From contig NW_015622541.1 in the NCBI RefSeq assembly GCF_000835495.1, positions 8,122,001 through 8,186,000 of the forward strand: a stretch of DNA of 64,000 nt, written 5' to 3'. Source of the stretch: Cladophialophora immunda. Lineage: Eukaryota; Ascomycota; Eurotiomycetes; Chaetothyriales; Herpotrichiellaceae. A model generated the notes under the pieces. It was not told the origin of the DNA, ran no database searches, and was given only the letters and a program-made list of their open reading frames with translations. Both the position numbers and the translations under genes were made by a program. Within the stretch, counting starts at the first letter, position 1; each line of letters opens with the position of its first letter. Shown piece by piece: positions 17,629 through 60,805 of the stretch.

Positions 17629-17815
17629 GCAGGCTATATAGACACGAAGACAAAAATAAGATGAAATGTCCTCTCATTGCAAGTATATCTTTGGGAATGC
17701 AAAACAAATTCGTTTCGACGAGACCATGATCCAGTTGAGACGCCAATGTGATGAAGGAACATGGCAAATTGAAGTCCCGAAGGAACAGCCTTGTGTTTTG
17801 TCTTCTATCTACTGT

Positions 17816-19909: not shown

Positions 19910-20524
19910 CTTGGCAGCGTATTAATGCTGCAGACGGTAATGGCCTTCGGTCCAAGCAGTACTGGGTCCAAGTGATTCACAGGCTTAGATGGCTGTGGTT
20001 ACTCGAGGTCGGTCAACACAAAGATTTCATTTTCATGTTCAGATCCAGCCAGGCCCGATGGTATTTGACAAAGAAAGATGCACCCGAAAGCTATTAGACC
20101 ACAGCTCCGCTTAGGGAGTCCATGAGTCAGCTATATGACGCGGATGCGTGGACCTTTGTCTCTACCACCAATACTGAGTATCATACTCATTGTCTCTGTT
20201 GTTGCCTGGCTAGGCCTCCTGACTCGCAACAAACTCTGCACAATACATGCAGCATTTCCTAGTAATATCCAAAATGCTATTACCTTTTGGAAGGCTAAGA
20301 AACAATAGCGGCACAAATATTCAAATTGTCCCTGACAGCAAAAGCAATTTCTCTATAGAATTTTGATTGTTTGAGAGCTGAGATTCAAACCACTACTGCC
20401 AACATGTCACTCTCGAATAGCCCAGTCAAATCCGTCTAATTGATCTCTGCGTAATGTGAGCCGCCTTCCCATGCCAGAAAAACTTAGGACCTTTCGACGT
20501 CTGTGCCAGAATCAATCAGTCCAT
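19910..20524. other. Intergenic region: acyl-CoA ligase promoter
   Basis: This 615 bp stretch lies upstream of the ligase. It is AT-rich around 20150-20400. I see no gene in it. Confidence 0.45.
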
Positions 20525-22159: not shown

Positions 22160-22817
22160 CTTCGTGGGAGTTTCTAGTGACTATGGATGGGAAAAGGAAG
22201 AGATTGCTGTGGCTATAGGCAGGCTATCACGTTGAGAGCGCAGTGTTTAGATCGAACAGCCAACGATCAATCGATATCTCTCTGTGTGTGTTTTCTGTCC
22301 AGACACCTCGCCAGGCTGCTCCTCGAAAGACTGGCCAGGGTTTATAAGAGCACACGCGAAGGCGCGAATCAAGCAAAGCTTAGCTGCATGAGGCAATCTT
22401 CATAAGTCATACTAGGTCAACAACCCGGTATACGGCTTGAAACTACACCGACCGTGCACGCTCAAATACAAATAGAGCAGAAAAACTGCCTGTCCGATCC
22501 CGCATATATCTCGGACCGTGACAATTACTGAACAGCAGGGACCAATATCACATACTCCTGAGTTCAAATGCTAAATTGCAGTACGATGCCTAGCCACCCG
22601 CCGAGGGAAAGGGAGCCATGAAGACTGACCCACCCACGAGGGTACATCGCTCTGGTCCTCTCCCTAGTGTACGGCCGCAGCCTTGGCCAGCAATCACCAC
22701 CGCCAAATCATCAGGCCAAGCCTTTTGTCTTTGACAAAAGAACCAACAAAACGTCCTCCCTCGTAGCCTGGACATCTCCAAACAGTCGGATACATTTCTG
22801 TTTCCGTCTATCACTGC
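22160..22817. other. Intergenic region without recognised genes
   Basis: This 658 bp region separates the start of the broken transporter from the 3' end of the NmrA-like gene, both on the minus strand. Nothing recognisable was found. Confidence 0.45.
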
Positions 22818-23924
22818 CTACTCCGGCTGAGGTGTCCGCCCGCCAACGCCATCACGATAATCCTTCAACACCGAGGCCGGCGTTGCATCATACCCGACCT
22901 TCTTCATCCACTCACGTACGCTCTTCACCCGATCCGGCAGAATCTCGTCCAGAAGCTTATAATCCCTCGTTGTCAGTTCGTCCCGCCATGTATTCCAGAA
23001 GCCAGAGAAATTCTCGCGGAACGTGAATAGGGTGGGATCGTTACGGGTCGTGGAATGCCCGATCTTCATGTCCGGGTACGGAAAAATCGGAAGAGCAAAG
23101 TATTCGTCCAGCGTGACGTTCTTGTACACAGCCTGCTTGCCCGTCACGCATGTAAATGCTTTGACAAGGTCCGCCCATGCGATGTCCTCGGTTGCGACGT
23201 GCAAATCCAGTCCAATACTGCGGGATGGGTTGTCGAGTAGCCAGCGCGCATAGCGGCCGCAGTCGTCGAGGTAGATGAGTGGACACTTCGCGGCCCCCAA
23301 CGGTGCAGCAAATACCAATGTCCCAGGCTCCGAAGGGTGTGGGAATGGCCGCAGGACCTCACTCAGACCTTCCATGTATAGGCAGGAGGTCAGAACAGAC
23401 CATGCCATGCGCTCCGTTGGCTGCGCGGCGATGTAGTCGACGACTTTGCCTTTGCCGTCCAGATGGCCTGTCCGGTATTTTGGATCGAACCCGCCTAGCT
23501 TGCTTGCGTATTCAAGCCCAGCGTAGATGAAGTGCTTGACTTTGAACTCGCGCGCCAGCTCGTACAGTCGGATGCCCCAGTAGATCTCCTCTTTTTCGCC
23601 AATGGCGAATCCGTTCGTGTTGGCGAAGACGTAGTCTACACCTTCGAAAGCCTTGCGAAGATCAGGCTCGTAGTAACTGTTACCCTGTTGGATGGTTACG
23701 CCGGGGAGTTGTGATAGCTCGTGGGCTTCGCTGGAGGTCGCGTCGCGGGTGATGACGCGGGCGGAGTATTTCTGGTCGGCGACCATAGCTTTGAAAGAAG
23801 TGTATTAATACATGTTCTAGTGTTTTTGGATTGAAATTGGGGTAATATTTGTACCTTTGACCACGGGTATACCTTGGGCGCCTGTGCCGCCAACGATCAA
23901 GATGGTGCCTGACTGATTCGACAT
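22818..23924 (-). CDS. NmrA-like family NAD(P)-binding protein
   Basis: Two exons, complement(22818..23788, 23855..23924), encode 346 residues. The first exon carries a Rossmann dinucleotide-binding loop, ILIVGGTGAQGIPVVK, and the 66 bp intron follows directly. Further NmrA-like features are ARVITRDATSSEAHELSQ, the GVDYVFANTN segment, KHFIYAGLEYASKLGG and a C-terminal region with YFALPIFPYPDMK. Family members either sense NAD(P) to modulate GATA regulators, like NmrA itself, or act as atypical short-chain reductases in fungal metabolism. The active-site pattern does not settle which. It is a single gene with no obvious operon-like partner. Confidence 0.88.
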
Positions 23925-38401: not shown

Positions 38402-39709
38402 CTAAGATTGGCTGCTGTAGAAAGGCCTGGGACTGAAAGCCATTTCGGCTGCGCCGATGTCGAAAACAGCCAATACGTTATTCAGGAACGTGTCACCAAG
38501 GATGTAGTGACCGACGGGGCCTGATTGAATGCCACTAATGCAGAGTCCACCAGGTATATCTTCATCGAGGATCAGGTCCACTGGATTGAGCTCAAACAGC
38601 GTTCCTCCGATCCGAATACCCATATCAGGGGCAGTGGCGTTGCAGTTCACAAGATAAAGTCCCTCTTCCACTCTGGCTGGGGGATCGAATAGGCCGTTGA
38701 TGACTTTCGAATCTTGAGTCGGGACGTACATGAGGGTGGTCCCTGAGTCAACAATATATTGGTGGGAGGTAACATTGACGCCGTCGTAGACGAGGGTATC
38801 GATAGTGATTGTGTAGAACTGGAGTTCTGGGTGGGTAGGATCGATTAATTGTGGCTTGGACGGCTCAATAGGCTTCACCGTGAAGGATCCTGTGGCATTG
38901 ATGATGGGGTCGTGAGGGTGTGGGATCCCGCCAATCGCGAGCATACCGCCTGGCGATGTATTGCGCGATGAACGTGAGAGTGCAAGGCTGAACATTGGCC
39001 GGGACAGCTGGTCAATGAAGATCGTGTTCAGGATGCTGGAATAAGGCATGTTGTTGCCGGTAATATTACCAGTGATTTCGTCGTTGGAGGAATTGGTTCC
39101 GGGAAATGCATTGGTAATGGACGAATAAGCCAGCCCGACAAGTCCGGAGGAAATGCCATCGCCAGACCAAGCAGCGAGCAAAGGAAGGGCGACTTCTTGA
39201 TTTTTAATCTCGATTCCGGCGAATGTTACTCTCTCCAAGCCCAGGGTACCATATAGATATTCACCATCACCATAGCTAGTGTAGAAGTTCTCGTCGGGGA
39301 TGTCAATAAAAGAATCGCCTGGGACATAGCCTGACGAGCCGAATCCACACGTCGAAGCCGGTAAGGTAGCATTAGTAGTCTGGTTGACACAAGTAAATCC
39401 GGCTTTGATAAGCCATGTATCCGAACTTCCAGTGTCAATGATTACCGGGAACTCTTGGGTGCCGAATGTAATGTTCGCTACAAAGGCGGAGCTAAAGTCG
39501 ATGCTGGTCAAAGCTGCCTCCCCAAGCCGTAAAGCGTAGTTTCGCAGATGCCAGGAGCTGGTTTTGGCGTGGGTTTTGGCAGCCTGCAGTGCTGTGGTTT
39601 GGTGTGTGTGGAGATACTGACTGACCAAGGCACTTTTGATGGGGATGGCGACTCCGACAGTCTGGTGAGCTGCAAGGGAAATGAGAACTGAAATCTGCAG
39701 TAACCTCAT
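38402..39709 (-). CDS. Secreted pepsin-like aspartic protease
   Basis: One uninterrupted frame of 435 residues carries a signal peptide (MRLLQISVLISLAAHQTVGV). The two catalytic aspartates sit in VIIDTGSSDTWL (Asp92) and YIVDSGTTLMYV (Asp321), as in eukaryotic A1 peptidases. The flap tyrosine region reads TSYGDGEYLYGTLG. Many N-glycosylation sequons are present, and the end FDIGAAEMAFSPR is typical. It should cleave proteins outside the cell or in the secretory route or vacuole. It has no hydrophobic C-terminal tail, so no GPI anchor is expected. Its position next to the UstYa genes makes it a possible precursor-processing or maturation protease, but scavenging is as likely. Confidence 0.92.
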   Translation of the reverse strand: MRLLQISVLISLAAHQTVGVAIPIKSALVSQYLHTHQTTALQAAKTHAKTSSWHLRNYALRLGEAALTSIDFSSAFVANITFGTQEFPVIIDTGSSDTWLIKAGFTCVNQTTNATLPASTCGFGSSGYVPGDSFIDIPDENFYTSYGDGEYLYGTLGLERVTFAGIEIKNQEVALPLLAAWSGDGISSGLVGLAYSSITNAFPGTNSSNDEITGNITGNNMPYSSILNTIFIDQLSRPMFSLALSRSSRNTSPGGMLAIGGIPHPHDPIINATGSFTVKPIEPSKPQLIDPTHPELQFYTITIDTLVYDGVNVTSHQYIVDSGTTLMYVPTQDSKVINGLFDPPARVEEGLYLVNCNATAPDMGIRIGGTLFELNPVDLILDEDIPGGLCISGIQSGPVGHYILGDTFLNNVLAVFDIGAAEMAFSPRPFYSSQS

Positions 39710-40200
39710 GGTGGTGTGGAAGAGGCGGAAATGGGTAAGGAAAGGCTAATGCTTTGCTGACGAGGACAGAAACGCGGCACGAAACTACAAAGCTCGTCCT
39801 TTGGTGATAAAGTGTGGCCCGCTCAAGACAGAGAGACATTTACAAGGGAAATCAGGAGCATTTTTATAATATTGGTCCTGGTGATGACTGGTTGGAACGC
39901 CAGAATACGAAGCATCTCGATCGAAGGGTGACCAATCGAGGATTGTTGGTAGCTTCCACCTTTGAATAGTAGTTCCGTGTGCGTGACGCCTAGAATCGGC
40001 GCGCGTCAATGGTCGCCGGAGTCAAGGCATTGTCAGAGGCTCCAGCGTTCCGAACGTTGGACGTAATAATCAAAATGTGAGAAAATGTACCTGGTACTCC
40101 GTACGAAGTACTTGTAGTTCTTTAGGCCTTATCACGTGGCGACCAGTCTAGTTTAAGTCTCGAGACGCGTTATTAGTGGTCGGGAAACCTTCTGGGTCTG
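39710..40200. other. Intergenic region: aspartic protease promoter
   Basis: This 491 bp stretch lies upstream of the protease gene and downstream of the UstYa-like gene at 40201. A GGCGCGCGTCAATGG-type GC-rich patch occurs near 40000. No gene was recognised. Confidence 0.4.
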
Positions 40201-41517: not shown

Positions 41518-42087
41518 ATGGTCTGGCGGAAGTCCAACTTGATCATGTTTGCCCTCGGTGGCTTCATTGCCCATTCATACGCTCATCTCATCTCTCCAGC
41601 AACTCCGACGCAAGACATCATCCACTGCGGTTCAAGTATTGACAAAGCCCGCTCTCTGGGCTGTCACTTTGACATCATGTCATATGCCTATTATCCCGAT
41701 GCATGCTGGGATCCACATCTCCACGACTCATTTGTGCACAAGTATCGCAGACAATGGGAATGGTCGACTCTGGATAACGAGACTTTGACCGTCGACCAAG
41801 TTCTCACAGGCAATTACAGCCACTTGCGCGCCAAGTCCGACTTTCATCAACTACATTGCGTCTACGAGTGGCAACGTTTGATCCGCTCACTATCGTTTGG
41901 ACGACCCCTGGACTTCAAGGATGGCGATTTCGGTCACGCTCATCACTGTTCCATGGGCCTTTTGCAGCCACAAACGAAGGACGTCAGCGATGGCGGTCCC
42001 ACGTATTTGGAGCTAATTGTTTGGTTCGCCAGATGCGGCATGACAGCAGATCAGATGATAGAAAAGAGCGGTCCGGACATTCTATGA
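41518..42087 (+). CDS. UstYa/DUF3328-family oxidase-like protein with both HXXHC motifs
   Basis: The frame gives 189 residues from the ATG at 41518. A short hydrophobic N-terminal anchor (NLIMFALGGFIAHSYAHLI) is followed by IHCGSSIDKARSLGCHFDIM and a Trp/Tyr-rich part. The first HXXHC is in DFHQLHCVYEW (His110, His113, Cys114), the second in FGHAHHC (His140, His143, Cys144). This spacing is shorter than in the two-exon-type UstYa genes nearby. UstYa-type proteins are copper- or iron-dependent oxidases that act in the secretory route and crosslink or hydroxylate RiPP core peptides. The N-terminus is short, so an upstream exon could be missing. It is divergent from the degenerate paralogue at 40201. 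Confidence 0.8.
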   Translation: MVWRKSNLIMFALGGFIAHSYAHLISPATPTQDIIHCGSSIDKARSLGCHFDIMSYAYYPDACWDPHLHDSFVHKYRRQWEWSTLDNETLTVDQVLTGNYSHLRAKSDFHQLHCVYEWQRLIRSLSFGRPLDFKDGDFGHAHHCSMGLLQPQTKDVSDGGPTYLELIVWFARCGMTADQMIEKSGPDIL

Positions 42088-42998: not shown

Positions 42999-44097
42999 AT
43001 GCCGTCAAAAACAGAACATTATCAACCACTTGCATCTACCGACATCGAAAGCAACCAGAGACCCTCCAGCGACGAAGGCTCAGAAGTCACCTTCAGCGGC
43101 GAGTTTGAGAAAAGTCGCAGGAGGAGGAAGATATGGGTTCAACTGAAAGAGATATTATCGAGATGGAATCTGATGGGCTCGCCCAGTGCCGGCCTCATCA
43201 TTTCTTGGACCACGTCAGCCATCCTCGCCCTGTTCATTCTGTACAATCTTCACTACAACTCAGGCCCGACGAACCCACTCTTCCCACAAATTGCTTGGTG
43301 TAAGTTACGAAATTCTGTGACGAAAGCTCCTATTTAACAGTTGTCCGAGCAGCGCCACTACAGCACCTTCTTGAATACGACGTTAAGGTCTTTAAATCTG
43401 CGTTCGGCGGAGATATAGACCGTCGATACCAAGGACCACCATCGCCGGAGATTGATGCGAACTGGGACGATCTGTACAACTGTAAGTGGCTGCGGTCTCG
43501 ATTTGGTTGTCTCTTTTTGTCCCATGCCCAGGAACTGATCCACAAGTGATTGAATAGTCGGGTCGACTATGCTCAATACCTACGAGGCGGCGCATCTTCC
43601 GAACAAGACATGGCCAATCGTTCAGGAGCCGGGAAATTACATTGCCGTCATCGACGTCTTCCACCACTTGCACTGCCTTAACATGATCCGCAAAGCCTTA
43701 CATCCAGAATACTACGTTCCTCACGACTGGAGTGATGCCATTCAAGAGGACAACCTTTTGGGAGAGCTCCACCTCGACCATTGTGTTGACTCTATCCGAC
43801 AGTCTTTGATGTGCATGTCGGATGTCAGCGTTATTCCATGGCAATGGGACACCAGTGACAGCACCTCTAAGCCAGTGGGAAATGTGAGTTGTGCCTTTCT
43901 CGCTTGCCTCGGGTAGTCGCTTGACCCCAGTTCTGACAGACGTGCAGATTGTGCATACATGCCGCAATTTCGACGCTATCCGAAGCTGGGTTTACGACAG
44001 AAGAATGATTGTTGATTTTGATAAATACACCGACATGAGACACGATCCACTTGCTGGAGTCTTCGATTGGAGCAACATGGGGCAGCCTGGAATCTAG
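42999..44097 (+). CDS. UstYa-type RiPP oxidase/cyclase (DUF3328)
   Basis: Four exons, 42999..43299, 43341..43481, 43558..43883 and 43948..44097, encode 305 residues. A polar N-terminus with an acidic stretch and an RRRR patch is followed by one membrane anchor (LIISWTTSAILALFILYNL). The core has W/FVRAAPLQHLLEYDVKVF, EAAHLPNKTWPI and both HXXHC motifs: DVFHHLHCLNMIR (His183-Cys187) and ELHLDHCVDSIR (His219-Cys223). The end VHTCRNFDAIRSWV is the usual UstYa C-terminus. All introns have good borders; the first is only 41 bp. The protein should sit in the ER/Golgi membrane with its catalytic part in the lumen and oxidise a ribosomal peptide. No defect is visible. Confidence 0.92.
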
Positions 44098-45641
44098 TCA
44101 CATTAGCATCCAGAGGTTGTATCACCGCTGTCCGCAGCCAGCAGGCAAAGGGGCTACTGGCAATTGTACCCATTTACTTGCAGCTAGGCATTCAGCGGTG
44201 CATGATCTGGCAGAGAGAGTGCATGCGCAACAAAGACCTTTGAGAAACACCTCACAATATCATGACAGCGAACGGGCATGGGCAGAGAAATGCCTCTAGC
44301 CTCGGTTACTGGACAGTTGCAGTTGGGTAAGTAGATCTGAAGACCATAGCTGAAAATAAAACATCGGTTTTCAAGTTTGTGAAGGGGCCAATTGTGTCCA
44401 TACGGATGATGTGCAGTAGTGTGCGCCAGCAGACCCTGCAGATCATTCCTGATTTCGCTGTTGTCCTAAGACCCCAGTCATCTCACAACAGGGTTACAAC
44501 AAAACCAATCAAGTATACGAAACCCCTGGTCCTCACTACCTTATCGCGCTCATTTGCCCGATCGGGCAGCCCCCATAAGCGACCGCTCACAGATACACGT
44601 AGGGTCGTATTCGAAATCCTACCGACGCAATCCAGCCACCCCCACCAAGCACGACGTGCATATGTAAGCTGAGATCCTTCACCCTTTTGCAGATGCTTTC
44701 GAGGACAACCGGGAGGCTTTAGCAGCTTCTCCGCCGGGAAAACAGTCTGGACCCCTGAGTCAATAAAGATGAAGTACTAGTACTCGGGAATCTGTACAAA
44801 AGCAATTCTACCCCTCGGCTAGAGACATAAGCTCTGGTCCTTGCTGACCGTGCCGCCAGCTGAGGTCCCTAGCCCAGTTTTTAATGGCCGCTCGTTACGG
44901 CGCAACTCTTTCCCTCTCAAGGGAATATGGCAACTTTGGCCCTAGCGAAGAGCATCTTCTCCTTTCCACACACAGACGCTGCGAAGGGATACCGGCATCC
45001 AACGCCTCTTCACAGCTGCAAATCCCTGCTTTGCTGGGCAGGTGAACTGCGTAAAAGTCGTAAATGTTGAAGACTAAATTCGACATTGTGCACGTGAGAG
45101 GTGATTGATTGATCATTGGTCGTTCGATGTGCTTGTATATCAGAGGTTCGCTCCTTCTTCTTCTGTCTCTGGAGTCTGGAAGAGAATTCACATCGCCTCT
45201 TTTTCGGCCACTTTCCTTATCGCCACTTTTCTCGAAGGATTGGCACCTTTCCATTTTGAGCCCCATGGCGAATCCCTCAAAGTCAAGACTCGACAGTGGG
45301 ATCATGCCATCTCTACTTGTATCACCATACGCCGGCTTCATGGGCCTCAGGTTAAGTGAACGCCAATAGTATCCCGCTGTCAACAACGCGCTTCAAGTTA
45401 CATATGCCTTAGAGTAGCGTAAAAATCAGACGGGCGTGGCCGCCGTCAGCCGGACCCGCGTGATGCGTAGGACAAGCATTTTGTTTTTCAGCAGAATTTT
45501 GGCGCTACAAGTCTGCTTCGCTACCACAATGAAGCGGTCATGAATATGTTGGCTGGGCATTGTATATAGGCCACAGCCGGCTCCCGGCTCCCGGCTCCCC
45601 ATTCCGACCTGGTTTGCGAAGAAGATCGAAAGTCAGTCGCG
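44098..45641. other. Gene-poor region upstream of the cluster regulator
   Basis: About 1.5 kb with no recognised gene. It ends in the promoter of the Zn2Cys6 gene at 45642, which has a TATA-like TGTATATAGG at 45561-45570 and a triple CCGGCTC repeat at 45577-45597. Confidence 0.4.
45577..45597. repeat. CCGGCTC x3 tandem repeat before the regulator start
   Basis: Three perfect 7 bp units, CCGGCTC, end 44 bp before the ATG. They may simply be slippage or may present repeated CGG triplets to Zn2Cys6 proteins, including the regulator itself. Confidence 0.6.
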
Positions 45642-47542
45642 ATGCCGGATGTGCGAAGTACGCGTGGCTGTTGGACTTGTCGTCTGCGAAGGAAGAAGTG
45701 TGACGAAACACCAGGCTCGTGTGCTACCTGCCGTAACCTTCAGCTCGAATGCGATGGGTACGGTGCACGCCCAAGCTGGATGGATGGCGGCAGAGTTGAG
45801 GACAGCTATCGCAAGTACGTGAAGATTCGCATCAAAAGCAGATCAGGTCCTCGACGCCGAACGCACCCCGACTCAGAGCGATCCTCGTGCACAGAGTCCG
45901 AGCGGTCTTCGTCTTCGTCTGAAGTCCAGCTAGACGACCAACGTCGCGTTCTATCTAGCCCTTTCCAGTGTCCATCCTGGCCGGATCCGATATTGAGCCC
46001 GTCATTCGACCTCGCTGCTTCTTTTGCGGATTATCTTCAGCCTGGCCGGCGCGACCCTCAGAGACCTGAGGTAATATCTGGCGAAGGCGGTGTCGCTGGA
46101 ATGGCATCATCCGGCGCCTCCGCCCTCGAAGTCAACGCACTTACCGTTGGCGCAACCCCAGAACGATTTTCGTGGATTAACGGTCACTATGCTCGAATTC
46201 CAGAGTCCTATAATGATTACTCTTCCCGACTGACTGACGACCCTCCGGCACTGCTAATGCACTATCTCGACCATGTCTTCCACTTACAATACCCTCTGTT
46301 TTCCAAAACCGCTGTCATACACAGTCGCAGTTGGGTGCTGGATATGATGTACGAGTGTGCCTCATTCTACTGGCTGGTTCTAGGTCTTGCTTCTTACCAC
46401 AAAGAGTCAACTGCCGCTACCAGTAACCAGTATTTGGGACCATCAGAACCCGGTCAACTTGCTGGTTGGAGAGTATACCATGCTTTCGGGCTCCACGAAT
46501 TCCGGCAGACTGTCGCCAGCATGGGTCAGGATAATTCTGTGGATGCAGGGACTGGTAAGGTTGAGAAGGGTCTGCAGATTCTGGCCTGCGTCGTGCAGTT
46601 CTTGTCCTTCAAGGTATGTTTGCTGAGAGTGAGATTCGGTGGAATCTTCACTGACATTCGGCGGCGCAGCTCCTTGGGGCCTCGGTGGAGGAAACTGGCG
46701 TACACCGTGGCGCCGAGGTCTTTTTGTTTGATGTAGTCAAAGACTGTGCCCATCTAGGCCAACCATCCAGCGAGACTTCTCAAGTCCAGCAAGTCCCAAT
46801 CAGCACCAGCATGAAACATCAAAGCCTCCCAATCTTCGTCAGCAGCATCATTTGGTATGCCGCTCTGTCGTCTTTATCAATCCGAGAGCCCCCGTTTGCG
46901 GTCCGCATCCTAGACCTCGTGGAGAATACGCCACTCTTACAAGTCCGAAGCTCCTTTGGCTGTGAGACGTGGTTGATTGTGAGTCCCAATCAAGTAAGCG
47001 ACCTCGACGCATGGCAAGCCCAGATGGCCGCCGACAACTGCCTCAGCCGCCTGGAACTCAGTACCAAGGCCGAAGTGATCTGGCTTCAACTCGAGCGGAA
47101 TATGGAGATGTCGACAAAAGCAAGCTCCAGCAAAGCCCAAAAGGCTCCGCTAGGCGGCGAACTCGATCTCGATGCCATCTCTTCTATCGTCACGGCTGCA
47201 TACGCCCGAACAGTCTTGGTTTACCTGCACACTGTGGTATCTGGGCCATATCCCAAGCTCCGCGAAGTTTCGGAAAATGTTGAACACATAATAAACCTTC
47301 TGCCTCATCTGGAATACTCTTCGCTGTTTCGGCTGATCAGCTGGCCCATATACATCGCCGCTGCCATGAGCGATTTCGACAATCGACAGTGGTTCGTAGA
47401 GCAGTGTGAGTCCTTCCCACAGGCTGACTTACAGGTTGTGCAAGCTCGCCAGCGCGTGGAAAAGTGCTGGGAGTTGCGGGACTCAGGGCCATTGGCTTGC
47501 GATTGGGTGGCGGCGTTCAGGATGGAGACAAGCCCTTTATGA
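45642..47542 (+). CDS. Zn(II)2Cys6 transcription factor, candidate regulator of the RiPP locus
   Basis: Two exons, 45642..46613 and 46670..47542, encode 614 residues over a 56 bp GTATGT..GCAG intron. The zinc cluster is at the very N-terminus: GCWTCRLRRKKCDETPGSC, then TCRNLQLECDGYG, the spacing used by UstR/Pro1-type DUF3468 regulators rather than Gal4-like ones. A Ser-rich acidic linker (SERSSCTESERSSSSS) follows. The helical C-terminal domain begins ALLMHYLDHVFHLQYPLF and includes YECASFYWLVLGLASYH. It sits among UstYa genes on both sides, so control of the RiPP genes is a reasonable inference. The promoter carries a CGG-containing repeat at 45577-45597. Confidence 0.88.
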
Positions 47543-47817: not shown

Positions 47818-48869
47818 CTAAACCGGTTTTGTCGGTGTTCTGTTCAATGCCCTCTCACCGTTTCGATTCCAGTCCACGATTCTGTCAAAGTTCCGGCACT
47901 TGTGCATCACATCGAAGTTTGGGTTGGGAATGTCTTTTTTCGCGCTCCACGTATAGGTGAGCACCGACACGTCGCCGTAGCACATGACATTGCGACGAAG
48001 CATTTCAAGACAATGATCCATGTGCATGCGGACGTTGTCGGGCGTGTCCAGCAGCGCCCTGTCAGACGCGTAGTAGTCTGAATAGACGAACTTGCGAAGC
48101 ATGTTCTGTCAAGTCGGGCTCTCGGCCCGACATAGAGTCAGTGCCTGCTTCTCTCGTCCACATCGAAGATACGCACAATGCAATGCAATTGGTGGAAAAC
48201 CTCGAGGAAACCGAGGTATTCACCACCCTCCTCTTCTGTAAAATGGACTGCTTTGGTGGCTGAATGTCTGAGCTTGTCAGTGACTTCGACTTCTGTCAGC
48301 GCAAAAGGCCGTTCTGCGCGATCGCGATCAGTCACCAGCCTTGCCCATTCTGCCCTTGCCCAAGTGTGCAAAGGATACTTTGCGACTCACCTGCTACAAG
48401 ATCATCCCAATTTGCGTCGATTTCAGGACTTGGCAGGCCACCATACTGGATTGACTCATCGAAGAGGGAACGATAGTTATATTCGATAGCATCGAGGGCG
48501 GGAGCTTACATGTTTGATCAGTAACTTCATCATAGATTCCAGCCCCAAGCTTGCTGGTCAGCGGAAGGGCGTAAACTCACACCAAGCCGAGATCTCTCGT
48601 AGGCACGATGACATGTCAGTTTCCGCGAGGTGGAAGATATATTGCGCTAGTATCAAGATGAAGAGCAGGTTCAGAAATAAGAATGCAGTATTGAGTCGAC
48701 ACAAGAGCCTCTACACCGGCGCTGCGGCCCACCGTGGGCTCGTCTTTGTGGACTCGGTTTGGAATTCTTGTTCGTGCTTTAGTAACGAGGCCTGTGCGGT
48801 CCCAAGCTCTGCCTCAGGATCTTGATCGTCATGGAAAGATGTCATCCTCATGAGCTTCGTCGGCGACAT
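47818..48869 (-). pseudogene. UstYa-type RiPP oxidase gene with an in-frame stop
   Basis: Four exons, complement(47818..48105, 48177..48313, 48391..48504, 48581..48869), with good borders and phases, would encode 275 codons. TAG interrupts codon 53 (plus-strand 48711-48713), just before the membrane anchor (LNTAFLFLNLLFILILAQYI). Everything after the stop looks intact: SPALDAIEYNY, EVFHQLHC (His175-Cys179), RMHMDHC (His208-Cys212) and the MHKCRNFDRIVDW end. No splice variant that removes the stop keeps the anchor. A single nonsense change in an otherwise clean gene suggests recent inactivation, readthrough, or an assembly error. Its intact sister is at 49762-50820, and both point away from the precursor gene. 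Confidence 0.82.
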
Positions 48870-50820: not shown

Positions 50821-52197
50821 AGGGACACCAGTGATGGGAAGGGGGGTAAGAAGTGGTGCTTGGGAGAAACAACTTTACGACCTGAAGAGGGGATTGAGGT
50901 CGAGACAGGAGGTGCCTGGTGAGAAGCTGAGGTTAGCATTATGAAAAAAGTTTCAGCTCCGAGATCACATCATAGCAATGGTAAACAGTGCGACTGTCCA
51001 TAGTCCGCCTCAAGCTTAATCTCCCAGAGCCCGCCCAAGGCATCTCACACAGGAAGATCCCAGATGGCTAGTGAAGTCCAAATCCGGCGCTCCGCAAGCA
51101 ATTTTCAGCGACTCGACGCGTGTCGCGGGCGGCAAAGACTGAGCGACACCTGCTGAATCGGGCGCAGTGAGCTACGCGCCGGAGAATAATAGAAGGGCGA
51201 CTTTGTCACTGGCCATTGTGGAGTAGTACCAGCAGCACACCGTCTAATTCTTGAATAGTAATTGATATGGTGCTTCGAGGCCCACGACGTGGCATTAATC
51301 AAGCACGGTTCTGTTCCTCGGGCGCAGCTGCGGAGTTGAACGTCTCGCCGTAGTTGCCTTAATGGCTCGACGACTTGATCCTTCGACTCTACACATCCTC
51401 TAGCCGTCTCACCCTTCACTCCATGCCCTGCGTGGTGCCGCAGCTTGTGCATTTCGCTGAACCGTCGTTCGCCAGGCCTCATTCCCCTATTGTGCGCGCC
51501 AGTCTAACACGGTATCGTAGCCCCGCTGTCGTCATTTTGATGCGGCGGTTTCTCTTGTATGCCTTCCTCAGCCCCTGCACCAAGCTCTGGACTTGGTCTG
51601 TACTCGAATCGCCAGCAATATTCCCTGCGCCCTCCATGTCATGTCTCCTACGTCTGCCACGCCAGTGCTGTAGGCTGACAACATAAGCCCACAATCACCT
51701 TCGCACGCGCGAACCTTACAGCTAGATGACGGCGCAATTACAACCTCATGACCTAGACAGGGCGATGGTACAACGACTTCCGGGCACATTACCGCCGTAA
51801 TGCTCAGAGACCTGCAATTATGCTCTCCAGCAGTGAGGTTGCCGGATCTGAGAATGTCAGAGCGCGATACGCGCGAAATCCTGAGATTGCCGAACACGCT
51901 CGCAACATTCCAGGACAGTCTCTGAGAACGGAGCCTTTAGCAAAGGTATGTGTTTTCAGATAGGTCTCGATCTGGAGTTTTGAAAGTGCCTACTTCCGGG
52001 AAGCACCTGGTCTATAAGGTATATATTTCGAGATCTCTCGGCCTCAACTTGAGTGTACATCATCTTCCAGCTCAGCGAAGTGAAGCGAAAACCAACGCAC
52101 AGTCTCCAAGTTGCGACTACCTCTTTAAGGACCCCAAGTCTCTCCAATACTTTGCATTTTGTTCCCGCTAGCTATTCCAGCTCTTGTTTCAGCAAAG
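50821..52197. promoter_or_regulatory. Divergent region between UstYa gene and RiPP precursor
   Basis: This 1.38 kb stretch holds the promoters of the UstYa gene at 49762 and of the precursor at 52198. Short open frames inside (such as 51105-51482 on the minus strand) have no family features. A TATA-like element lies at 52013-52027. Confidence 0.5.
52013..52027 (+). promoter_or_regulatory. TATA-like element of the precursor gene
   Basis: TATAAGGTATATATT lies about 170 bp before the precursor ATG, a plausible distance for a fungal core promoter with a leader of about 140 bp. Confidence 0.4.
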
Positions 52198-52999
52198 ATG
52201 AAGTTCTCTGAAGTCTGTCTTGCGACGGTGTATGCCGCGAGTATGGCAACCGCGGCGCCGGCTCCGGCTCCGGCGGTGAGCTTCCAAACCTCACGAGCCT
52301 ACCATATCGCCGACAGGACACTGATCAATCTACTATAGGACCTGGACAAGGATCTCCTCCTTGCGGGCTGGGGCCTAATTCGCTACGACGACGCCAAGGT
52401 CAAGCGCGACGTGGTGAGTCATTTCCGGGAATAACGAAGGTAGAATATACTAAAGATTACTAGGATACTGACAGTGGATTTTTGGGTGTATGGGCACCTA
52501 AAGTCGATATTCCTACCGACTCAAAGACTAAACGCGCAGTGAGTATAAGATATATACTCTATCTAAAAGCGAGTATATACTGATTATACTTCTCTAGGAG
52601 CTCGATAAGGACCTCCTCCTTGCGGGCTGGGGCCAAATCCGCTACGATGACGCCAAGGTCAAGCGCGACGCAATTGAATCTAATCTTTTCGGCTGGTTGA
52701 TCGCTGTTGCGGATTATGATGGAGAGGACGCCAACCTCATCGCTAAGCGTGACACGCTTGAATCTAACCTTTTCGGCTGGTTGATCAGTATCGCGGACTA
52801 TTCTGGAGAGGATACGAATCTCATTGCCAAGCGCGATGCGATTGAATCCAACCTTTTCGGCTGGTTGATCGCCGTCGCAGATTATGATGGAGAGGACGAC
52901 AACCTCATCGCTAAGCGCGACACGCTTGAATCTAACCTTTTCGGCTGGTTGATCGGCATTGCGGACTACGACGGAGAGGTTGCCGTTGAAGCAGCTTAA
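52198..52999 (+). CDS. Kex2-processed repeat precursor of a dikaritin-type RiPP, Trp-containing cores
   Basis: Four exons, 52198..52275, 52339..52413, 52464..52538 and 52598..52999, all in phase 0, encode 209 residues. Exon 1 is a signal peptide with an Ala-Pro end. Then come seven units ending in Lys-Arg except the last: DLDKDLLLAGWGLIRYDDAK..KR (A1), DTDSGFLGVWAPKVDIPTDS..KR (B), A2 (as A1 with GWGQI), and four C units with NLFGWLIAVADYDGED or close variants. The layout of signal peptide, dibasic-spaced repeats and acidic flanks is that of UstA-type precursors cut by Kex2 in the Golgi and cyclised by UstYa oxidases. Each unit has exactly one Trp, after Gly or Val. A and C units also have Tyr (RYDD, ADYDG). 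The core borders and product are unknown. Confidence 0.88.
52667..52996 (+). repeat. Four tandem 84 bp coding repeats (last 78 bp) in the precursor
   Basis: Units start at 52667, 52751, 52835 and 52919. Units 1 and 3 open with DAIESNLFGWLIAV, units 2 and 4 with DTLESNLFGWLI followed by SI or GI. This alternation points to duplication of a 168 bp dimer. The last unit lacks the NLIAKR end and stops at VAVEAA. Confidence 0.9.
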
Positions 53000-53890: not shown

Positions 53891-55059
53891 CTATCGAGTA
53901 TTCCCACAAGGCTGCCGTCCACCGAGCAGCTGCAGCTTGGAAATCTGCACCTCCTTGTTCACATTCAGATACTGACTTCGCGATCTAATGCTCTCCCCAA
54001 ACAGGTTCAACAAAGCCGGTGCTGCACAAAGCAACAGCGCTATGACACCCAGCAAAGTCCCAGCCCATCGGAAGCCCAAACGTGTGCACATTTCCGGTGG
54101 TGCAAGTGGCAGAAATGCCGCAAAGCAGTTTTCCCCAAACGCCACCACAGATATAGCACTTGCAGCATTGAAAGCGTAGCAGTCAGTCACATAAACTGTA
54201 ACAGCTATCACGACGCATGTGACTCCGAATCCTGCGAGCACTAGTGAGACTGCCAGCACAATCCAATGGACGGATGGAAGCGCAGTCCATGCATACATGA
54301 AGATGCCGGCCGCAACTCCGAGCAAGGTGGCCGGGATAGCAAGGTACAACCTTCCGGATTCGATCGCTTGGCAGTGATGCGCGGGTAGATAATCAAATCT
54401 TGGATGCCGCAGGCCACGCCGCCCAGGAGGGCTCCAACTAGTAGAGGCGTGGAGAAAATTCCACCCTGGGCTTCATTCTATCTGTAAATTGCCGTGCACA
54501 CCTGGGGTACGGATGCTGCCATCATAAAGACCGTACCGAAGGCGAACGACGTCCACAGTGTGAAGGTGCCGATGATGAACTCCGAAAATAGCATTCGGAT
54601 CCCTGCGTCAGCGTCACTCGTGAAGTTGCCCACACTTCTGATAAGATGATCCTCGTAGAACGTGATTTGTATGTACGTTCGTTCGATGAGGAAACTAGGG
54701 GGAACGTTTTGCCGAGCGTAAAGTAAGTATACGGTAGCAGTGTCTCATAGATTGCAAGCTCGATGTATATCCTGTTTAACCACGGACTCAGCGAAACATT
54801 TGAGCGAGATTGAGAAAGCACATTCATACCACCTCCAATACAGCGAGTTTACGATGAGTCCGCCAAAGACGGACTCTCCGGTGATGCCTGCCAGCAACGC
54901 GGTAAGGTACACGGTCAGGGACACAGCTCGGCGGTGAATGTCAACGCCCCAAAGATCAGTCGCGATCCCATCCACGGCATTCTTCAGAATGCCGCCTGTG
55001 CTGAAATAAGGTCGACTTTGTGTTATAGGCAAAGCTGTTACACGAACGGTTCGAGTCAT
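53891..55059 (-). pseudogene. Broken DHA1-type MFS exporter next to the RiPP precursor
   Basis: Remnants run in order on the minus strand in shifting frames: GIATDLWGVDIHRRAVSLTV and FGGLIVNSLYWRWY (central-loop entry), IELAIYETLLPYTYF, a block RMLFSEFIIGTFTLWTSFAF and VFMMAASVPQV that meets TAG, then FSTPLLVGALLGGVACGI, a frameshift before LYLAIPATLLGVAAGIF, MYAWTALPSVHWIV and a tail ending GESIRSRSQYLNV. The first six helices are missing or unrecognisable. Intact relatives export toxins and secondary metabolites. Its location about 0.9 kb from the precursor suggests it once served the locus, but that is inference. Confidence 0.78.
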
Positions 55060-56749
55060 TAAGCGACCAGACCAATATGGTCTTGGGCATACCTACGCCC
55101 AAATAACTACATAGACGCAGTGACCGATAACGATAATGGATCAAACCAGCGACTTGGTTCACTGATTGAGGTTCATATTTCGGTAAAAGGACCTGATTCG
55201 CCTGGGCGAAGTTGCCGGCGGGGCTCGTCGGACTTCGTTGTACTCTTGTGCCATTCCCCTTTCCAGGTGACCAAGTAGTATAGGTTATCGCAAATGCAGG
55301 TGACAATTTATATAGCTGTCAAGGCTCACCCCCTACAAAGAGGAATAGGCATTTCTACCGAGAGCCGGCCGGGATTTGGAGTGTGAAGCTACACAATTTC
55401 AAATATGCCGGATGGCTAGAGCTTAGTTTGCCCGCATTACCCTGATTACAAGGCAAGCTCTGTTGCTGAACTAAATATTTCGAGTCCATTTCGCTCCGCT
55501 GATTTGACACTGCCGTGCCTCTCCTAGTAGCCACAACGATAGGATTGAAGGTCTCGTCCTTTGACGTCTGGAAAAAACCGAACATTTACATTTAAGGCGA
55601 CACATTGCTTTCGCCTTCTTCGCTGCGAGCTCGGATAAATCGTATTTGTTGTTGTTACCGGCAGCAATCATAGTAGGTACTTACAAGGACACTCGTACTC
55701 TCCTCATTCTCAAAAAATTCAACTCCAAATCTCCACATATTCAATCATCAAAGGAAGTGAAATAGAAATGGCAATCATAATGCACGTCCAAAAAAAAAAG
55801 CGGGCCGTGGAAGTATATATAAGATGTTTAAATGGAAGAAGCCACTGAGGGTGGCGTAAATAGCGCCGGCGGAAGCGGCTGCCTGAATACGAGCAGACTT
55901 TAGTGTATTTGTTGGGTGCTATTCGAGCGAAAACGTAGCCGCCTAAAGGGTCGAGTCCGATAAGAGTAATTGAACATTGGCCATTGGCACTATCCCCGGT
56001 GGTTTCGTTTACGGCTACTATCCCCAAAGGGGAGAGCGTGTTATAGTGACTGTTACAATCGTGAAAAATTTTGAGCCTTGTGGCCTGCAAAAGAAGGGTG
56101 CGAGGAAACCATTAGGGACTCCATTGAGCGAATGAATCAATTCAACTATCATAGAGACTAATACATTCACCTACTAATAATTAAGGCGCTCCATTCGACG
56201 ATCCACGCTATTATCAACATAAGAGAATGGCTGGGTAGTGCGGCTTCTGCTCTTTCCAGCGGTGAAAATCACGTGATTGGCGTGCGGAAGATCAAGTACT
56301 CCCCTCACCAATTATCTGCGGAGGAAGCTATCACCCATTTCTAAGGAAGGTAATCGGACCAATTTGGATTAGGTTCGATGACGCTTTCCGCAACGGTTCG
56401 GGTTTTATTTCCTAGATAAGAAAGTATCTGTGGTTCTTTCACCTCTTCGTGCACGTCAATTGCCTTTGTCGTGATGCGATCATGCGTATAATTATCCTTA
56501 TGGAAAAGACGCGTAGTTTACACAAGTTCTTTCCAAGTTCGGAAATAGTGAGAGATCATCACTGACCCAATCATCTACTATTTACACATACTGTGGAAGC
56601 TATAAAGACGGACCATCTAACAGCGAATAGCCCACTTTGTTTTTGCTCAGTGACTGAGCTGAAGCAGGCTAATTAACTACAACAGTTTCACCAAGTGGAC
56701 TTTCGACCCTATCAGCTCAATCCCCCCGAAATAGTAGCTATTCTACATC
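55060..56749. other. Gene-poor, partly AT-rich region
   Basis: About 1.7 kb between the broken exporter and the cupin gene. Only short open frames are present (for example 55719-56090 on the minus strand), without family features. No RNA gene was seen. Confidence 0.4.
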
Positions 56750-57214
56750 ATGGCAGCCACTACAGACAAAAAACGCTCTATACAGCCTGTCGTTTTGAGT
56801 AAGCAGGATATTGACTCATTGCCAGTCTTGGGCTTTCCAGAGCCAGGACGAATATTTGGGGGATTTCAAAATATATTCGCCAACGAAACGACCCCTACAA
56901 ACGAACTTACCTTTGGGATTGCGAGATTTCCAGCACGGACTAGCCACCAGACAGCATTCGAAGCTCTACACAGACACAAACCAGCAGAGTTTTATCATAT
57001 TCTTTCGGGTCATATGGTTATAATACTAGAAGGTATCCGTCATAGGGTCACCACCGGACACGCGATATATATCCCGGGCGATGCTGAGCATGGATTCTGC
57101 AACCCAAGTACTGAAGAGGATTTGGTGTTCTCCTGGGGTTTCGCTACAGACGGTTTCAGTAATATCGAATACAAATGGTCTGAAAAGCAGCCTGACTGGT
57201 CAAAGGTGGAATAG
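56750..57214 (+). CDS. Small cupin-domain protein (RmlC-like)
   Basis: One exon encodes 154 residues. The cupin barrel motifs are LHRHKPAEFYHILSGHMVII, which has the His-x-His and Glu metal ligands, and TGHAIYIPGDAEHGFCN with the final His. The segment before it, LPVLGFPEPGRIFGGFQN, and the tail FSWGFATDGFSNIEYKWSEK are not diagnostic. Single-domain cupins of this size act as dioxygenases, isomerases or cyclases, and some are found in fungal secondary-metabolite clusters. No signal peptide is visible, so it should be cytosolic. Its place 3.7 kb from the RiPP precursor makes a tailoring role possible but unproven. Confidence 0.85.
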   Translation: MAATTDKKRSIQPVVLSKQDIDSLPVLGFPEPGRIFGGFQNIFANETTPTNELTFGIARFPARTSHQTAFEALHRHKPAEFYHILSGHMVIILEGIRHRVTTGHAIYIPGDAEHGFCNPSTEEDLVFSWGFATDGFSNIEYKWSEKQPDWSKVE

Positions 57215-57753: not shown

Positions 57754-58198
57754 TCAGAGCGCGATGGGGGTGCACTGGACGTTGACAAGTCCCTACTGAT
57801 GTTAGCTGGTGTATTAAAGTATGAGTAAATACTTACGGTTTGGTCGCCCGTGCAGCAAGCGGCTTGGTTGTCACCGCAGGCTTGTTGAAGAGGGACCTGC
57901 ACGCCGAGGACTATAACAACGACATTAGAACAACGTCTATCCGTCTTGACGGGTGATGGAACTGACCATTGACGGGAATGGGGCTGCAGCTGCCTCCGAG
58001 AACGTCATTCAGGGTGCCGCTGAGGATGCCGGAATCGTCGCCGCTGGAAGTGCTGGTGTTGCAGCAGGAGATGACTTGTCCGTTGCCGCACTGATTGCTA
58101 GCTTCCTCGACGGTCAAGTCACTGTCGCTGCGAGCCTTGACCGGAACGCCAGCGAAAACGCCAGTGGCGGCGAGAGTGATGAGAAGAAGAGTATACAT
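57754..58198 (-). CDS. Hydrophobin (class I-type)
   Basis: Three exons, complement(57754..57792, 57837..57910, 57967..58198), encode 114 residues. A signal peptide (MYTLLLITLAATGVFAG) precedes the mature chain. Eight cysteines follow the hydrophobin order C-CC-C-C-CC-C: NQCGNG, SCCNTS, GSCSPI, QACGDN, ACCTG and VQCTPI. The long, Ser/Gly-rich loop between the CC pair and the third group fits class I. The last intron is short (44 bp, GTAAGT..GTAG) and the last exon encodes only GLVNVQCTPIAL, which supplies the eighth Cys. Hydrophobins are secreted and assemble into amphipathic layers on spores and aerial hyphae. It is unrelated in role to the RiPP genes as far as can be seen. Confidence 0.93.
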
Positions 58199-60805
58199 GA
58201 TGATCTGGAAGGACGAAATGAGTGTGATCTTTTCGAAGAAAAATTGGAAGTGAATGGCAAAGGTAAGCTGGTTTGATGAAGGCTGAAGATGATGAAGATT
58301 TTGGGAAAAACTTGGGAAGAGACATGATTATTTATACGTCTCGGGCGGCTTAGATAGTATCACATCTGGAAATTGTGCTCCCCTTTCGCCATGGATGGTA
58401 TTCAGCCAAATCGAAGAGCTTGGGATCGGCAGGGGCCTCAGAAGGGACATTTGGCTGTGGCTTGAACCTTCGGTAGCTGATATGATGTGTTTGAAGCAAC
58501 TGTGACAGCAACATATTATGTACGCATCTCCGAAACCCTACATAAAGCTTGACGGTGATTAACAGCCATCGCATCTCGCAATCCCATAGACCGCCATTCC
58601 CGGGGAAATCGGTCCGGGTTTCAATCTCCGGAATATGCAGAATCCTGGAGGGAAGACCTCCAAGAAGTGGTAAGTGGATAGCTATAGTGTGAGTGGAGCG
58701 GTAATCCCTCTACTACAGCGAATGAGCCACATGAACCGCTTCGTGGGCCATTGACGGGAGCACTCTCGGAGACAAGCCTACGATCTACGGAAGTTCGAGG
58801 GGCGCCAGGTCCATCTTGCGCATTGCAATTTTAAACCCAACTGGCCAGGGGTAATTACCATATTATATGGGCGGTCGGAATTAAGCAGAAGTTTTGGAGA
58901 CATACTTAACGCCTGATGTAGGGTCAATCTCATAGATGCATACCACAAAGATTTCACCAGACCCTTTCACTTAGTCTTGAGGAGCATTTACAAGACCGTC
59001 TTAGTAGGAGAAGTATATCTGCATCTGTTGGTTGCGTCTCGACTCACGGGAAAGCGGCGTGAATGCTTGTATGGCTGGGGCCAAGCACTCGGACTTTAAC
59101 TTCTGACTGCACAATGTCGGTGTGTCCAGGCATGATTTGGACTCCATTAACTAATGGGGATCACAAATACTTTGGCATGTCTGCTGTGGACAGGAAAAGG
59201 AATTCCGTCGGCGATCAGGATTGCTTTCAGCTGAATGTCACATTAAGAACCCTGTCCTTGTGGGGATCGGATATAAGAGCCGTCAGGGCGCCACACTACA
59301 ATATCCACCGGTAAGAAACTCTCTGATTGGTGTATGACGAGTGTATCCAATGAATTGTGGACGCTGATGTCGACCCTGCTTCGGGTGAAATATTTTGAGA
59401 GGATCATCAAGTTCCGTTGGAGTGTTGGATGTAGTGTATCCATTCACCCTTACTGTGCGCGTACAAGGGGACATTTTCTCCTGACAAGTGTCCAAAGTAT
59501 AGAAATGATAGGAAGTTACTCTATAATGATGAAGAATTGAAAACCTTTGAGGGTTAAGACTGGATAGTCGCCAAGTACGGAGTTCTTTTTGGGTTATTCC
59601 AGGAGCACAGATCATCGGCCCATTCATCCGGCTGGCCCCACTATATTGAGTCGCCCACGTCAGATGCGCCATGTGGCGTGCTCTCAGATCCAGTCAAAGT
59701 CTAAAGCCCCAGCTTGGCTTGCACCCATCGCTCACCCCCCGACTAGGGTCTAAATGCCGGAGGTCCGCGCGGGGCTAATTTCGGTAGAACCCGACTCCCC
59801 CCAGCACCGACTTGTTTGCTCTGATTTCGATATAGGTGAACAAAGAATTTACACCGTCGATCCGGCACCGCGAGTTTACGAAATACGTCCGATTCATCGT
59901 CCTTCGCATCCGAATGAGAGATTTGCTTGTCACAGTTGAAGATTTGCCGGCATAACGATACTTCTTGTTATTGTGTCGACAGGTGGAGAAAAGACAAAGC
60001 ACAACGAATTGGCACAGATAATGACAGGGGGACAACCCTGCGCGTAGACTTCCAGGCTGTATGTTCAATTTATCGATTGTGTTTTGGTGGAAGGGGGTGG
60101 TGGCAAGTCTGTCCTCGTTCTGCTGGTGATCAAAGGGTTTGAGAAGATTCGCCGCTGAGTATGTTGGTCTATAGTTGATGTCTGACACACCCACCGAGTC
60201 TTGAAGCCATCTTGGTTCGGTTTCGCAGGGAGCAAGAGGCGTCGAGTAGAAAGTATCCGGACAAAGTAGCCGGTAAGCCCTTGTCCAATTGCATCTGACT
60301 AGTTCGCAATGCCGATCGAGCCTCAGCGCCTAGAGAGCCATTTCACACATAAATCGTACTCAGCTGAGCCTGAGTCTAAAATATCCACCTTTGCTCCCGA
60401 AGTGGACCTTCATAGCCACCACCATATCCACCATCTTTCAAGCCAGAAAGGTCGAATAGGACCAGAACTGGCATTTGGCGAAACACAGTAGGGCATTTTC
60501 CCGACTGGGGTTTCGGCCCGGAAAAGGACCCTGACCACATATTTGGTGCACTCACAAACCGATCAGCTTCGTCAATACAGAGATACACATAGGCAAGATC
60601 GGCCTACGCACCTATCTCTATACTTATCCCCGACCGGGATATAGATGATACCCCCCTGATCTCGCCGGAGTTGCGGTGAGCCGGGTGAGCTATCCGCTAT
60701 GTCTCACCTATTGTGAAGGGGGAAGACGCCGGCCGCCCTACGTCTACTTCCTCTCCTATATAAACACCTCAGTCCCTTCGACCAGAGCTACTTCTTTCAT
60801 CCTCA
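58199..60805. other. Long gene-poor region before the repeats
   Basis: About 2.6 kb without a recognised gene. It begins with the hydrophobin promoter. Later parts have only short open frames in all directions. A TATATAAACACC at about 60756-60767 lies just before the inverted LTR-like arm and may be the element's promoter. Confidence 0.4.

What the first reader, a model, noticed from the sequence alone, without database searches (positions are those of the whole stretch)
52198..52999. Candidate new dikaritin-type RiPP precursor with tryptophan-centred cores
Seen: a signal peptide and seven dibasic-spaced units of three types, each with a single Trp in a small hydrophobic block (AGWGLI/AGWGQI, GVWAP, FGWLI) flanked by acidic residues. 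Known: UstA-type precursors have this layout, and their described cores (ustiloxin, phomopsin, asperipin) are led by Tyr or Phe. Inference: this locus makes Trp-containing cyclic peptides, perhaps with a Trp ether or C-C crosslink, or a Trp-Tyr link since A and C units also hold a Tyr 4-7 residues later.
Basis: partly seen in the sequence, partly recalled or inferred. Interest (0 to 1): 0.92.

Follow-up and report, generated by a model that had tools for sequence, protein, structure and literature searches.

The report
UstYa-linked tryptophan-core peptide precursor
A black-yeast gene encodes a probably secreted protein made of seven tryptophan-bearing repeats beside three genes for copper-type peptide-modifying enzymes, so it probably makes a small modified peptide of a known fungal class, with tryptophan where well-studied relatives have tyrosine.

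Summary
In detail: 52198-52999 (+) reads as four exons with short phase-0 GTGAG..AG introns, giving 209 aa: a signal-like N-terminus and seven dibasic-spaced units (A x2, B x1, C x4), each with one Trp. C units: pN/pS 0.20. The protein matches Cladophialophora immunda PV07_02400, whose deposited model uses another first exon without signal sequence. Three Pfam UstYa genes lie within 10 kb; no tyrosinase or S41 peptidase match is in the window. A dikaritin-type (UstYa-linked, Kex2-processed) RiPP precursor is well supported. A Trp crosslink is not shown. Trp is the only aromatic in all seven units (Tyr 6, Phe 5). By my scan 6 of 10 UstYa loci of this genome carry such precursors; 4 have Trp in units, 3 of these no Tyr in any unit. 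The idea is not new in print: Umemura 2020 reports Trp in 20.5% of DUF3328-linked repeat precursors (24.5% without such genes) and a Trp-Pro type in genera including Cladophialophora. New member of a known kind; whether UstYa enzymes act on Trp is a good testable question.

The parts
52198..52275 (+). exon 1 of the precursor: start codon and signal-like N-terminus (26 aa)
52276..52338 (+). intron 1 (63 nt, GTGAGC..TATAG, phase 0)
52339..52413 (+). exon 2: unit A1 (AGWGLI) and first two residues of unit B
52414..52463 (+). intron 2 (50 nt, GTGAGT..ACTAG, phase 0)
52464..52538 (+). exon 3: rest of unit B (GVWAP, no Tyr) and first residue of A2
52539..52597 (+). intron 3 (59 nt, GTGAGT..TCTAG, phase 0)
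52598..52999 (+). exon 4: unit A2 (AGWGQI), four C units (FGWLI) and stop codon
49762..50820 (-). UstYa gene G4: exons 50820-50523, 50462-50340, 50283-50056, 50000-49762; 295 aa, TM-like segment by eye, HQLHC and HLDHC motifs; deposited for another strain as CLAIMM_09822 isoform 2 (listed 100% identical; one residue differs by eye)
47818..48614 (-). UstYa gene G3 (deposited as CLAIMM_09821, 190 aa, starting after the TM-like segment; one residue differs by eye); HQLHC and HMDHC motifs; an in-frame TAG at 48713-48711 lies upstream of the TM-like segment, splicing there unresolved
42999..44097 (+). UstYa gene G2: TM-like segment by eye, HHLHC and HLDHC motifs; outer limits from reading frames, inner splice sites not fixed
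41518..42087 (+). single open frame with HQLHC and HAHHC motifs, no significant Pfam match (best 13.7 bits, under cut-off) and no NCBIfam match; possible distant UstYa-like oxidase
45570..47542 (+). Zn2Cys6 transcription factor (PF00172 and PF11951, two overlapping open frames)
53891..55092 (-). MFS transporter, probably several exons (PF07690 matched in the 53891-54472 piece; the pieces 54478-54744 and 54745-55092 gave no match)
56738..57214 (+). small cupin (PF07883); membership of the cluster uncertain

Best explanation
The gene encodes a Kex2-processed repeat precursor of a dikaritin-type RiPP. Proposed path: the signal peptide takes the protein into the secretory pathway; Kex2 cuts after each KR and a carboxypeptidase trims the basic residues; membrane-anchored UstYa enzymes (G2, G4, perhaps G3), dicopper oxidases with two HxxHC motifs, oxidise an aromatic residue of each unit, most likely in the hydrophobic block around the single Trp (LLLAGWG, GFLGVWAP, NLFGWLI); peptidases trim the acidic flanks; the MFS protein exports the product. 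Shown here by sequence: precursor anatomy, purifying selection on the C units, neighbouring UstYa genes. Inferred from the family: secretion, Kex2 cutting, oxidation by UstYa. Inferred and uncertain (about 0.45): that Trp itself is the residue modified or crosslinked.
For: Signal-like N-terminus and seven units between dibasic sites. Three PF11807 genes in the window, the nearest 1.4 kb from the precursor; each has two HxxHC motifs, the copper-site signature according to PMC12435403 (part 1 of 3 read). pN/pS 0.20 between C units. The block LFGWLI is identical even at DNA level in all four C units: 0 of 6 codons vary inside, 11 of 14 compared outside (block chosen after seeing the data; permutation P for a run that long 0.025). 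LLLAGWG is likewise invariant in A1/A2. Trp is in 7 of 7 units, Tyr in 6, Phe in 5. Same genome: by my scan 6 of 10 UstYa loci have repeat precursors; besides this one, C1:5.87 Mb (EEDTERGGIPWKR, nine units) and C3:3.81 Mb (EPSEKGSLTADWLEKR, five units) have Trp and no Tyr in their units, and C1:7.09 Mb has Trp in two of five similar units and no Tyr in them; C5:4.22 Mb and C2:0.91 Mb are Tyr types without Trp.
Against: Trp is not enriched in DUF3328-linked precursors overall (20.5% against 24.5%), whereas Tyr is (65.6% against 38.2%) (PMC7329392). Tyr with Asp nearby, as in A and C units, is a feature of several Tyr-rich precursor types. Trp-ending repeat peptides of a mushroom precursor were detected as linear peptides, though in a heterologous host (PMC9769878 passages). 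No tyrosinase or S41 peptidase match in the window. The precursor has no homologue outside the species to show core conservation. G3 may not be intact. The UstYa tree does not put all enzymes of Trp loci together.
Confidence: 0.75

Rival explanations
1. A dikaritin-type RiPP in which Tyr, not Trp, is oxidised (a sub-case of the RiPP reading above): the Tyr of YDD/YDGED is linked to a neighbouring residue, and the Trp block is a recognition element.
For: Tyr is in 6 of 7 units and invariant in A and C. The three described products named in PMC7329392 react at Tyr; Tyr is enriched in DUF3328-linked precursors, often with Asp nearby.
Against: Unit B has no Tyr. The DNA-invariant block is around Trp; the Tyr codon of C units varies. 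Three other UstYa-linked precursors of this genome have no Tyr in their similar units.
Confidence: 0.3
2. A Trp-to-Tyr linked macrocycle in A and C units, as the first reader suggested (a sub-case of Trp modification); unit B would then be a spacer or differently modified.
For: Trp and Tyr are 5 or 7 residues apart in 6 of 7 units.
Against: The spacing differs between A and C; B lacks Tyr; no precedent seen in the papers listed or read here.
Confidence: 0.12
3. A plain linear repeat-derived peptide (pheromone- or signal-like) that is only cut by Kex2, with the UstYa genes serving another product.
For: Several such precursors give linear, barely modified peptides (PMC9769878 passages); Trp is as common without DUF3328 genes.
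Against: Three UstYa genes within 10 kb, the nearest 1.4 kb from the precursor; my scan found no other repeat precursor in the window. The protein has no Pfam match, pheromone families included.
Confidence: 0.15
4. Not a precursor: a secreted structural repeat protein, or a wrong gene model.
For: The deposited model has a different first exon without signal peptide; no RNA data for this gene here.
Against: Canonical short introns, frame kept through four exons, pN/pS 0.20.
Confidence: 0.05

Closest known systems
Ustiloxin/phomopsin precursors (dikaritins)
   Same: signal peptide, repeats between Kex2 sites, UstYa genes beside it; in C units an aromatic residue, one residue, then Ile (W-L-I), like the published Tyr-x-Ile core pattern
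   Different: Trp in place of Tyr; Ile is at +2 in C but at +3 in A, and B has Pro at +2, so the register holds in C units only; three unit types; no tyrosinase or S41 peptidase match in the window
Asperipin-2a cluster
   Same: cluster without tyrosinase (PMC12048977 passage); more than one repeat type in the precursor (PMC7329392)
   Different: one UstYa gene there, three here; Tyr-Phe ether there (PMC12186524 passage)
Umemura type P-3 repeat precursors (Fonsecaea, Cladophialophora, Galerina, Psilocybe, Coprinellus)
   Same: Trp in the units, DUF3328 genes near 4 of 7, same genus
   Different: Trp accompanied by Pro; probably corresponds to the GGIPW precursor at C1:5.87 Mb (my inference; the figure was not seen), not to this one
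Tyr-type precursor of the same genome (C5:4.22 Mb, units such as GYIAILGNKK)
   Same: UstYa matches on both sides, dibasic spacing, GY.. at the place of GW..
   Different: Tyr, not Trp; one basic unit type
Plant burpitides (lyciumin type)
   Same: works alike at most: a dicopper enzyme that links the Trp indole nitrogen to a carbon (PMC12186524 passages); PMC12435403 compares its four-histidine site with that of DUF3328
   Different: different enzyme family (BURP domain); no membership claimed

Membership tests
Kex2-processed repeat protein (KEP) | at least 3 tandem repeats of at least 8 aa between KR/KK/RK/RR sites | tested here: met
   7 units of 23-28 aa, 4 of one type; definition in PMC7329392 section 13
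Kex2-processed repeat protein (KEP) | signal peptide | tested here: inconclusive
   sequence and hydropathy fit; SignalP not available; deposited model P0001 lacks it
Dikaritin | repeat precursor beside DUF3328/UstYa genes with two HxxHC motifs (class-defining enzyme according to PMC12048977 section 23) | tested here: met
   three PF11807 genes, each with two HxxHC motifs
Dikaritin | tyrosinase in the cluster (older definition) | tested here: not met
   none of 11 PF00264 matches of the genome (E <= 0.001) is in the window; one search says functional clusters lacking one or more of the older definition's genes are known
Dikaritin | methyltransferase in the cluster (older definition) | tested here: inconclusive
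   none among 39 window frames scanned against Pfam, but not all exons were scanned
Dikaritin | transporter or peptidase in the cluster | tested here: met
   MFS gene at 53891-55092; an aspartyl protease frame at 38402-39745; S41 peptidase absent: 0 of 3 genome matches in the window
Dikaritin | side-chain crosslinked product | not testable with these tools
   needs mass spectrometry or NMR
Ustiloxin/phomopsin type | Tyr-led core with Tyr-x-Ile | tested here: not met
   the only aromatic in all units is Trp; no Tyr is followed by x-Ile

The most novel reading that the evidence does not exclude
In this fungus UstYa dicopper oxidases have moved from Tyr to Trp: the precursor yields Trp-crosslinked macrocycles (indole to an aliphatic carbon or to Tyr), a fungal counterpart of the plant lyciumins, and the Trp-bearing precursors at four loci of this genome form a small set of such pathways. 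A UstYa branch (split supported 98/89) holds G2 and the UstYa proteins of two other Trp loci together with four basidiomycete proteins, apart from the one Tyr-locus enzyme in the tree; G3, G4 and the C1:7.09 enzyme lie elsewhere, so this is suggestive only.
Probability: 0.38. Interest if true: 0.75.

Novelty: new member of a known kind. Interest (0 to 1): 0.48.

Why it matters
The crosslinks named for this class in the passages seen here involve Tyr or Phe side chains. One genome that holds Trp-bearing and Tyr-bearing precursors, each beside its own UstYa genes, is a natural set for asking whether these copper enzymes also act on Trp. It also shows how such genes can escape surveys: the deposited model of this gene lacks the signal exon, and the published survey started from annotated proteins with SignalP.

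Tried and rejected
Pattern GGNTGGCTNATH over the genome: far too degenerate, 225 matches against 111 for the reversed control; dropped. Homologues of the precursor: only itself listed among 6224 candidates at E <= 1; in the genome only its own four exons; no Pfam family. Tree of UstYa proteins to test a Trp-specific clade: rough FastTree with 76 rows, then IQ-TREE with 55 rows. Rows from Trp loci need 2 changes, as low in 31 of 500 shuffles, one origin in 0% of bootstrap trees, so not a firm result; G3, G4 and the C1:7.09 enzyme lie elsewhere; C3:3.81 and C1:5.87b are flagged long branches; the outside rows came from a search with G4 and lack G2's own relatives. Left out: short own-genome pieces (C2:0.91, C5:3.29, the second genes at C1:7.09, C8 and C5:4.22) and 18 of 62 database relatives under 230 aa. 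Because the Tyr-type locus C2:0.91 was among these, the tree has one Tyr row only. Solved structures: no relative of G4 (one chance hit at E 0.21). In the repeat scan I dropped two two-unit hits at C6:1.82 Mb as chance and two other frames of the C1:5.87 Mb repeat. Papers PMC12143957 and PMC4822579 are not held, so the primary reports on asperipin cyclisation and on the first dikaritin list were not read. Structure prediction was not used: it would not say which residue is modified.

Full report
1. What is there. The gene at 52198-52999 (+) is real by sequence. With introns 52276-52338, 52414-52463 and 52539-52597 it encodes 209 aa. The introns are 50-63 nt, all in phase 0, with GTGAGC/GTGAGT donors. 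The enumeration also lists other in-frame splice combinations; I chose the one with consensus donors and whole units. After a signal-like N-terminus come two A units (LLLAGWGL/Q-I-RYDD), one B unit (GFLGVWAPKVDIP, no Tyr) and four C units (NLFGWLI...ADYDGED), each ending in KR except the last.

2. More than chance. Random first-order Markov copies of the window gave two similar dibasic-spaced units in 1 of 60 and never more. Pooled over pairs, C units differ at 0.49 per synonymous and 0.098 per replacement site (ratio 0.20). The six codons of LFGWLI do not vary at all, whereas 11 of the 14 other codons compared do (post hoc choice of the block; permutation for a run of that length P 0.025). 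LLLAGWG in A1/A2 is also identical. This marks the Trp block as the constrained core or as a tract kept alike by gene conversion.

3. Organism and deposited annotation. Its model (225 aa) starts at an upstream exon, 51820-51945, and so has no signal peptide. The deposited CLAIMM_09822 isoform 2 is listed as 100% identical to my spliced G4 (one residue differs by eye), which supports the splicing there. A paper that uses CLAIMM gene names for strain CBS 110551 says its annotation was RNA-seq assisted (PMC5595782 passages).

4. Surroundings. Pfam UstYa matches in the genome number 22 (exon by exon), falling into 10 loci by my grouping; six of the 22 are in this window and belong to three genes: G2 (+), G3 and G4 (-). 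Each has two HxxHC motifs. PMC12435403 (part 1 of 3 read) describes this motif pair as a binuclear copper site in membrane-bound CctR and most DUF3328 proteins. A fourth protein, 41518-42087 (+), has HQLHC and HAHHC but no significant family match. A Zn2Cys6 factor and an MFS transporter lie on either side of the precursor. Of 11 tyrosinase and 3 S41 peptidase matches in the genome none is in the window. In G3 an in-frame TAG precedes the membrane segment, and the deposited protein starts after it; whether the TAG lies in an intron is open.

5. Same genome, other loci. I scanned 20 kb at each of the other nine UstYa loci. Five have dibasic repeats with at least five similar units, so with this one 6 of 10. 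Tyr types: C5:4.22 Mb (ten units, such as GYIAILGNKK or GYFNVLGNKK) and C2:0.91 Mb (six units, ETDIYHATIKR). Trp types: C1:5.87 Mb (nine units, GGIPWKR), C3:3.81 Mb (five units, LTADWLEKR, the last one ending LE), C1:7.09 Mb (Trp in two of five similar units, next to di-histidine units), none with Tyr in these units. Signal-like N-termini can be read by eye for all five, in the same open frame at C1:5.87 and C1:7.09; at C5:4.22, C3:3.81 and C2:0.91 a stop or another frame lies between, so an intron must be assumed. C8:0.38, C6:1.82, C5:3.29 and C2:1.67 Mb had none by this scan (two two-unit hits at C6 were dropped as chance); introns may hide some. The GGIPW precursor has eight database relatives of unnamed source, all eight with GGIPW in their repeats, so a Trp core can be strongly conserved.

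6. How it most likely works. By family knowledge: entry into the secretory pathway, Kex2 cutting, oxidation by UstYa, trimming, export. Which residue reacts is not shown. For Trp: present in 7 of 7 units (Tyr 6, Phe 5), in the invariant block, and in C units in the register of the published Tyr-x-Ile core (W-L-I), although not in A (Ile at +3) or B. Against: overall Trp is not enriched beside DUF3328 genes (20.5% against 24.5%) and Tyr is (65.6% against 38.2%) (PMC7329392 section 7). I put Trp modification at about 0.45 in all: 0.38 for the Trp-crosslink case given as the novel reading, the rest for other Trp oxidation. The 0.75 of the best explanation covers the RiPP reading with either Trp (0.45) or Tyr (0.30) as the site.

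7. Enzyme tree. In a 55-row tree one split (98/89) sets G2, both C1:5.87 enzymes and the C3:3.81 enzyme, with four proteins named as Collybiopsis, Mycena, Ephemerocybe and Athelia (basidiomycetes, from my own knowledge), apart from the rest, which holds the one Tyr-locus row and three rows of loci without a detected precursor but also G3, G4 and the C1:7.09 enzyme. The label test is weak (31 of 500 shuffles as low). It is a lead, not evidence. It is in line with the survey's P-3 type, which spans Cladophialophora, Fonsecaea and three mushroom genera.

8. Novelty. Trp-bearing, DUF3328-linked repeat precursors are in print as counts and as type P-3. In nine searches of the held open-licence library (listings capped) I saw no paper on Trp modification by UstYa; subscription papers are mostly missing, so this says little. 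The locus is a new member of a known kind. The survey's method needs a signal peptide on annotated proteins, so this gene was probably missed there, if its assembly was included (inference; the survey's tables were not read).

Noticed in passing
L024:2540-3082 = G000:C5:4221103-4221645 (-): Ten-unit Tyr-type precursor (GYIAILGNKK and variants) lying between two UstYa matches: a textbook-like dikaritin locus in the same genome.
   Followed up: partly
L038 (L037+L038 joined, 14951-15538) = G000:C1:5871951-5872538 (+): Nine near-identical EEDTERGGIPWKR units after a signal-like N-terminus; eight database relatives with the same GGIPW core, two of them with Cys on both sides of it. Probably Umemura's Trp-Pro type P-3.
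   Followed up: partly
L039:6220-7149 = G000:C1:7092220-7093149 (-): Precursor mixing di-histidine units (HHTEAQIAAKEAAAKK) with Trp units (DEFGPWDSTEDEFGSWVDKR) beside UstYa matches.
   Followed up: no
L041:6239-6517 = G000:C3:3805239-3805517 (-): Five-unit precursor with Trp and no Tyr (EPSEKGSLTADWLEKR) 2.4 kb from a UstYa match.
   Followed up: no
L048 (L047+L048 joined, 10886-11188) = G000:C2:913886-914188 (-): Six-unit Tyr precursor (ETDIYHATIKR) about 1.5 kb from a UstYa match.
   Followed up: no
48711-48713 (-): In-frame TAG upstream of the membrane segment of UstYa gene G3; the deposited second-strain model starts downstream of it.
   Followed up: partly
41518-42087 (+): Protein with two HxxHC-type motifs (HQLHC, HAHHC) without significant Pfam or NCBIfam match.
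   Followed up: partly
57911-58327 (-): Weak hydrophobin match (17.3 bits, under the 23-bit cut-off) about 5 kb beyond the precursor.
   Followed up: no
15954-23804: TPP-dependent enzyme, AMP-binding enzyme and NmrA-like protein within 8 kb, perhaps aromatic-compound catabolism in this toluene-degrading species (guess).
   Followed up: no
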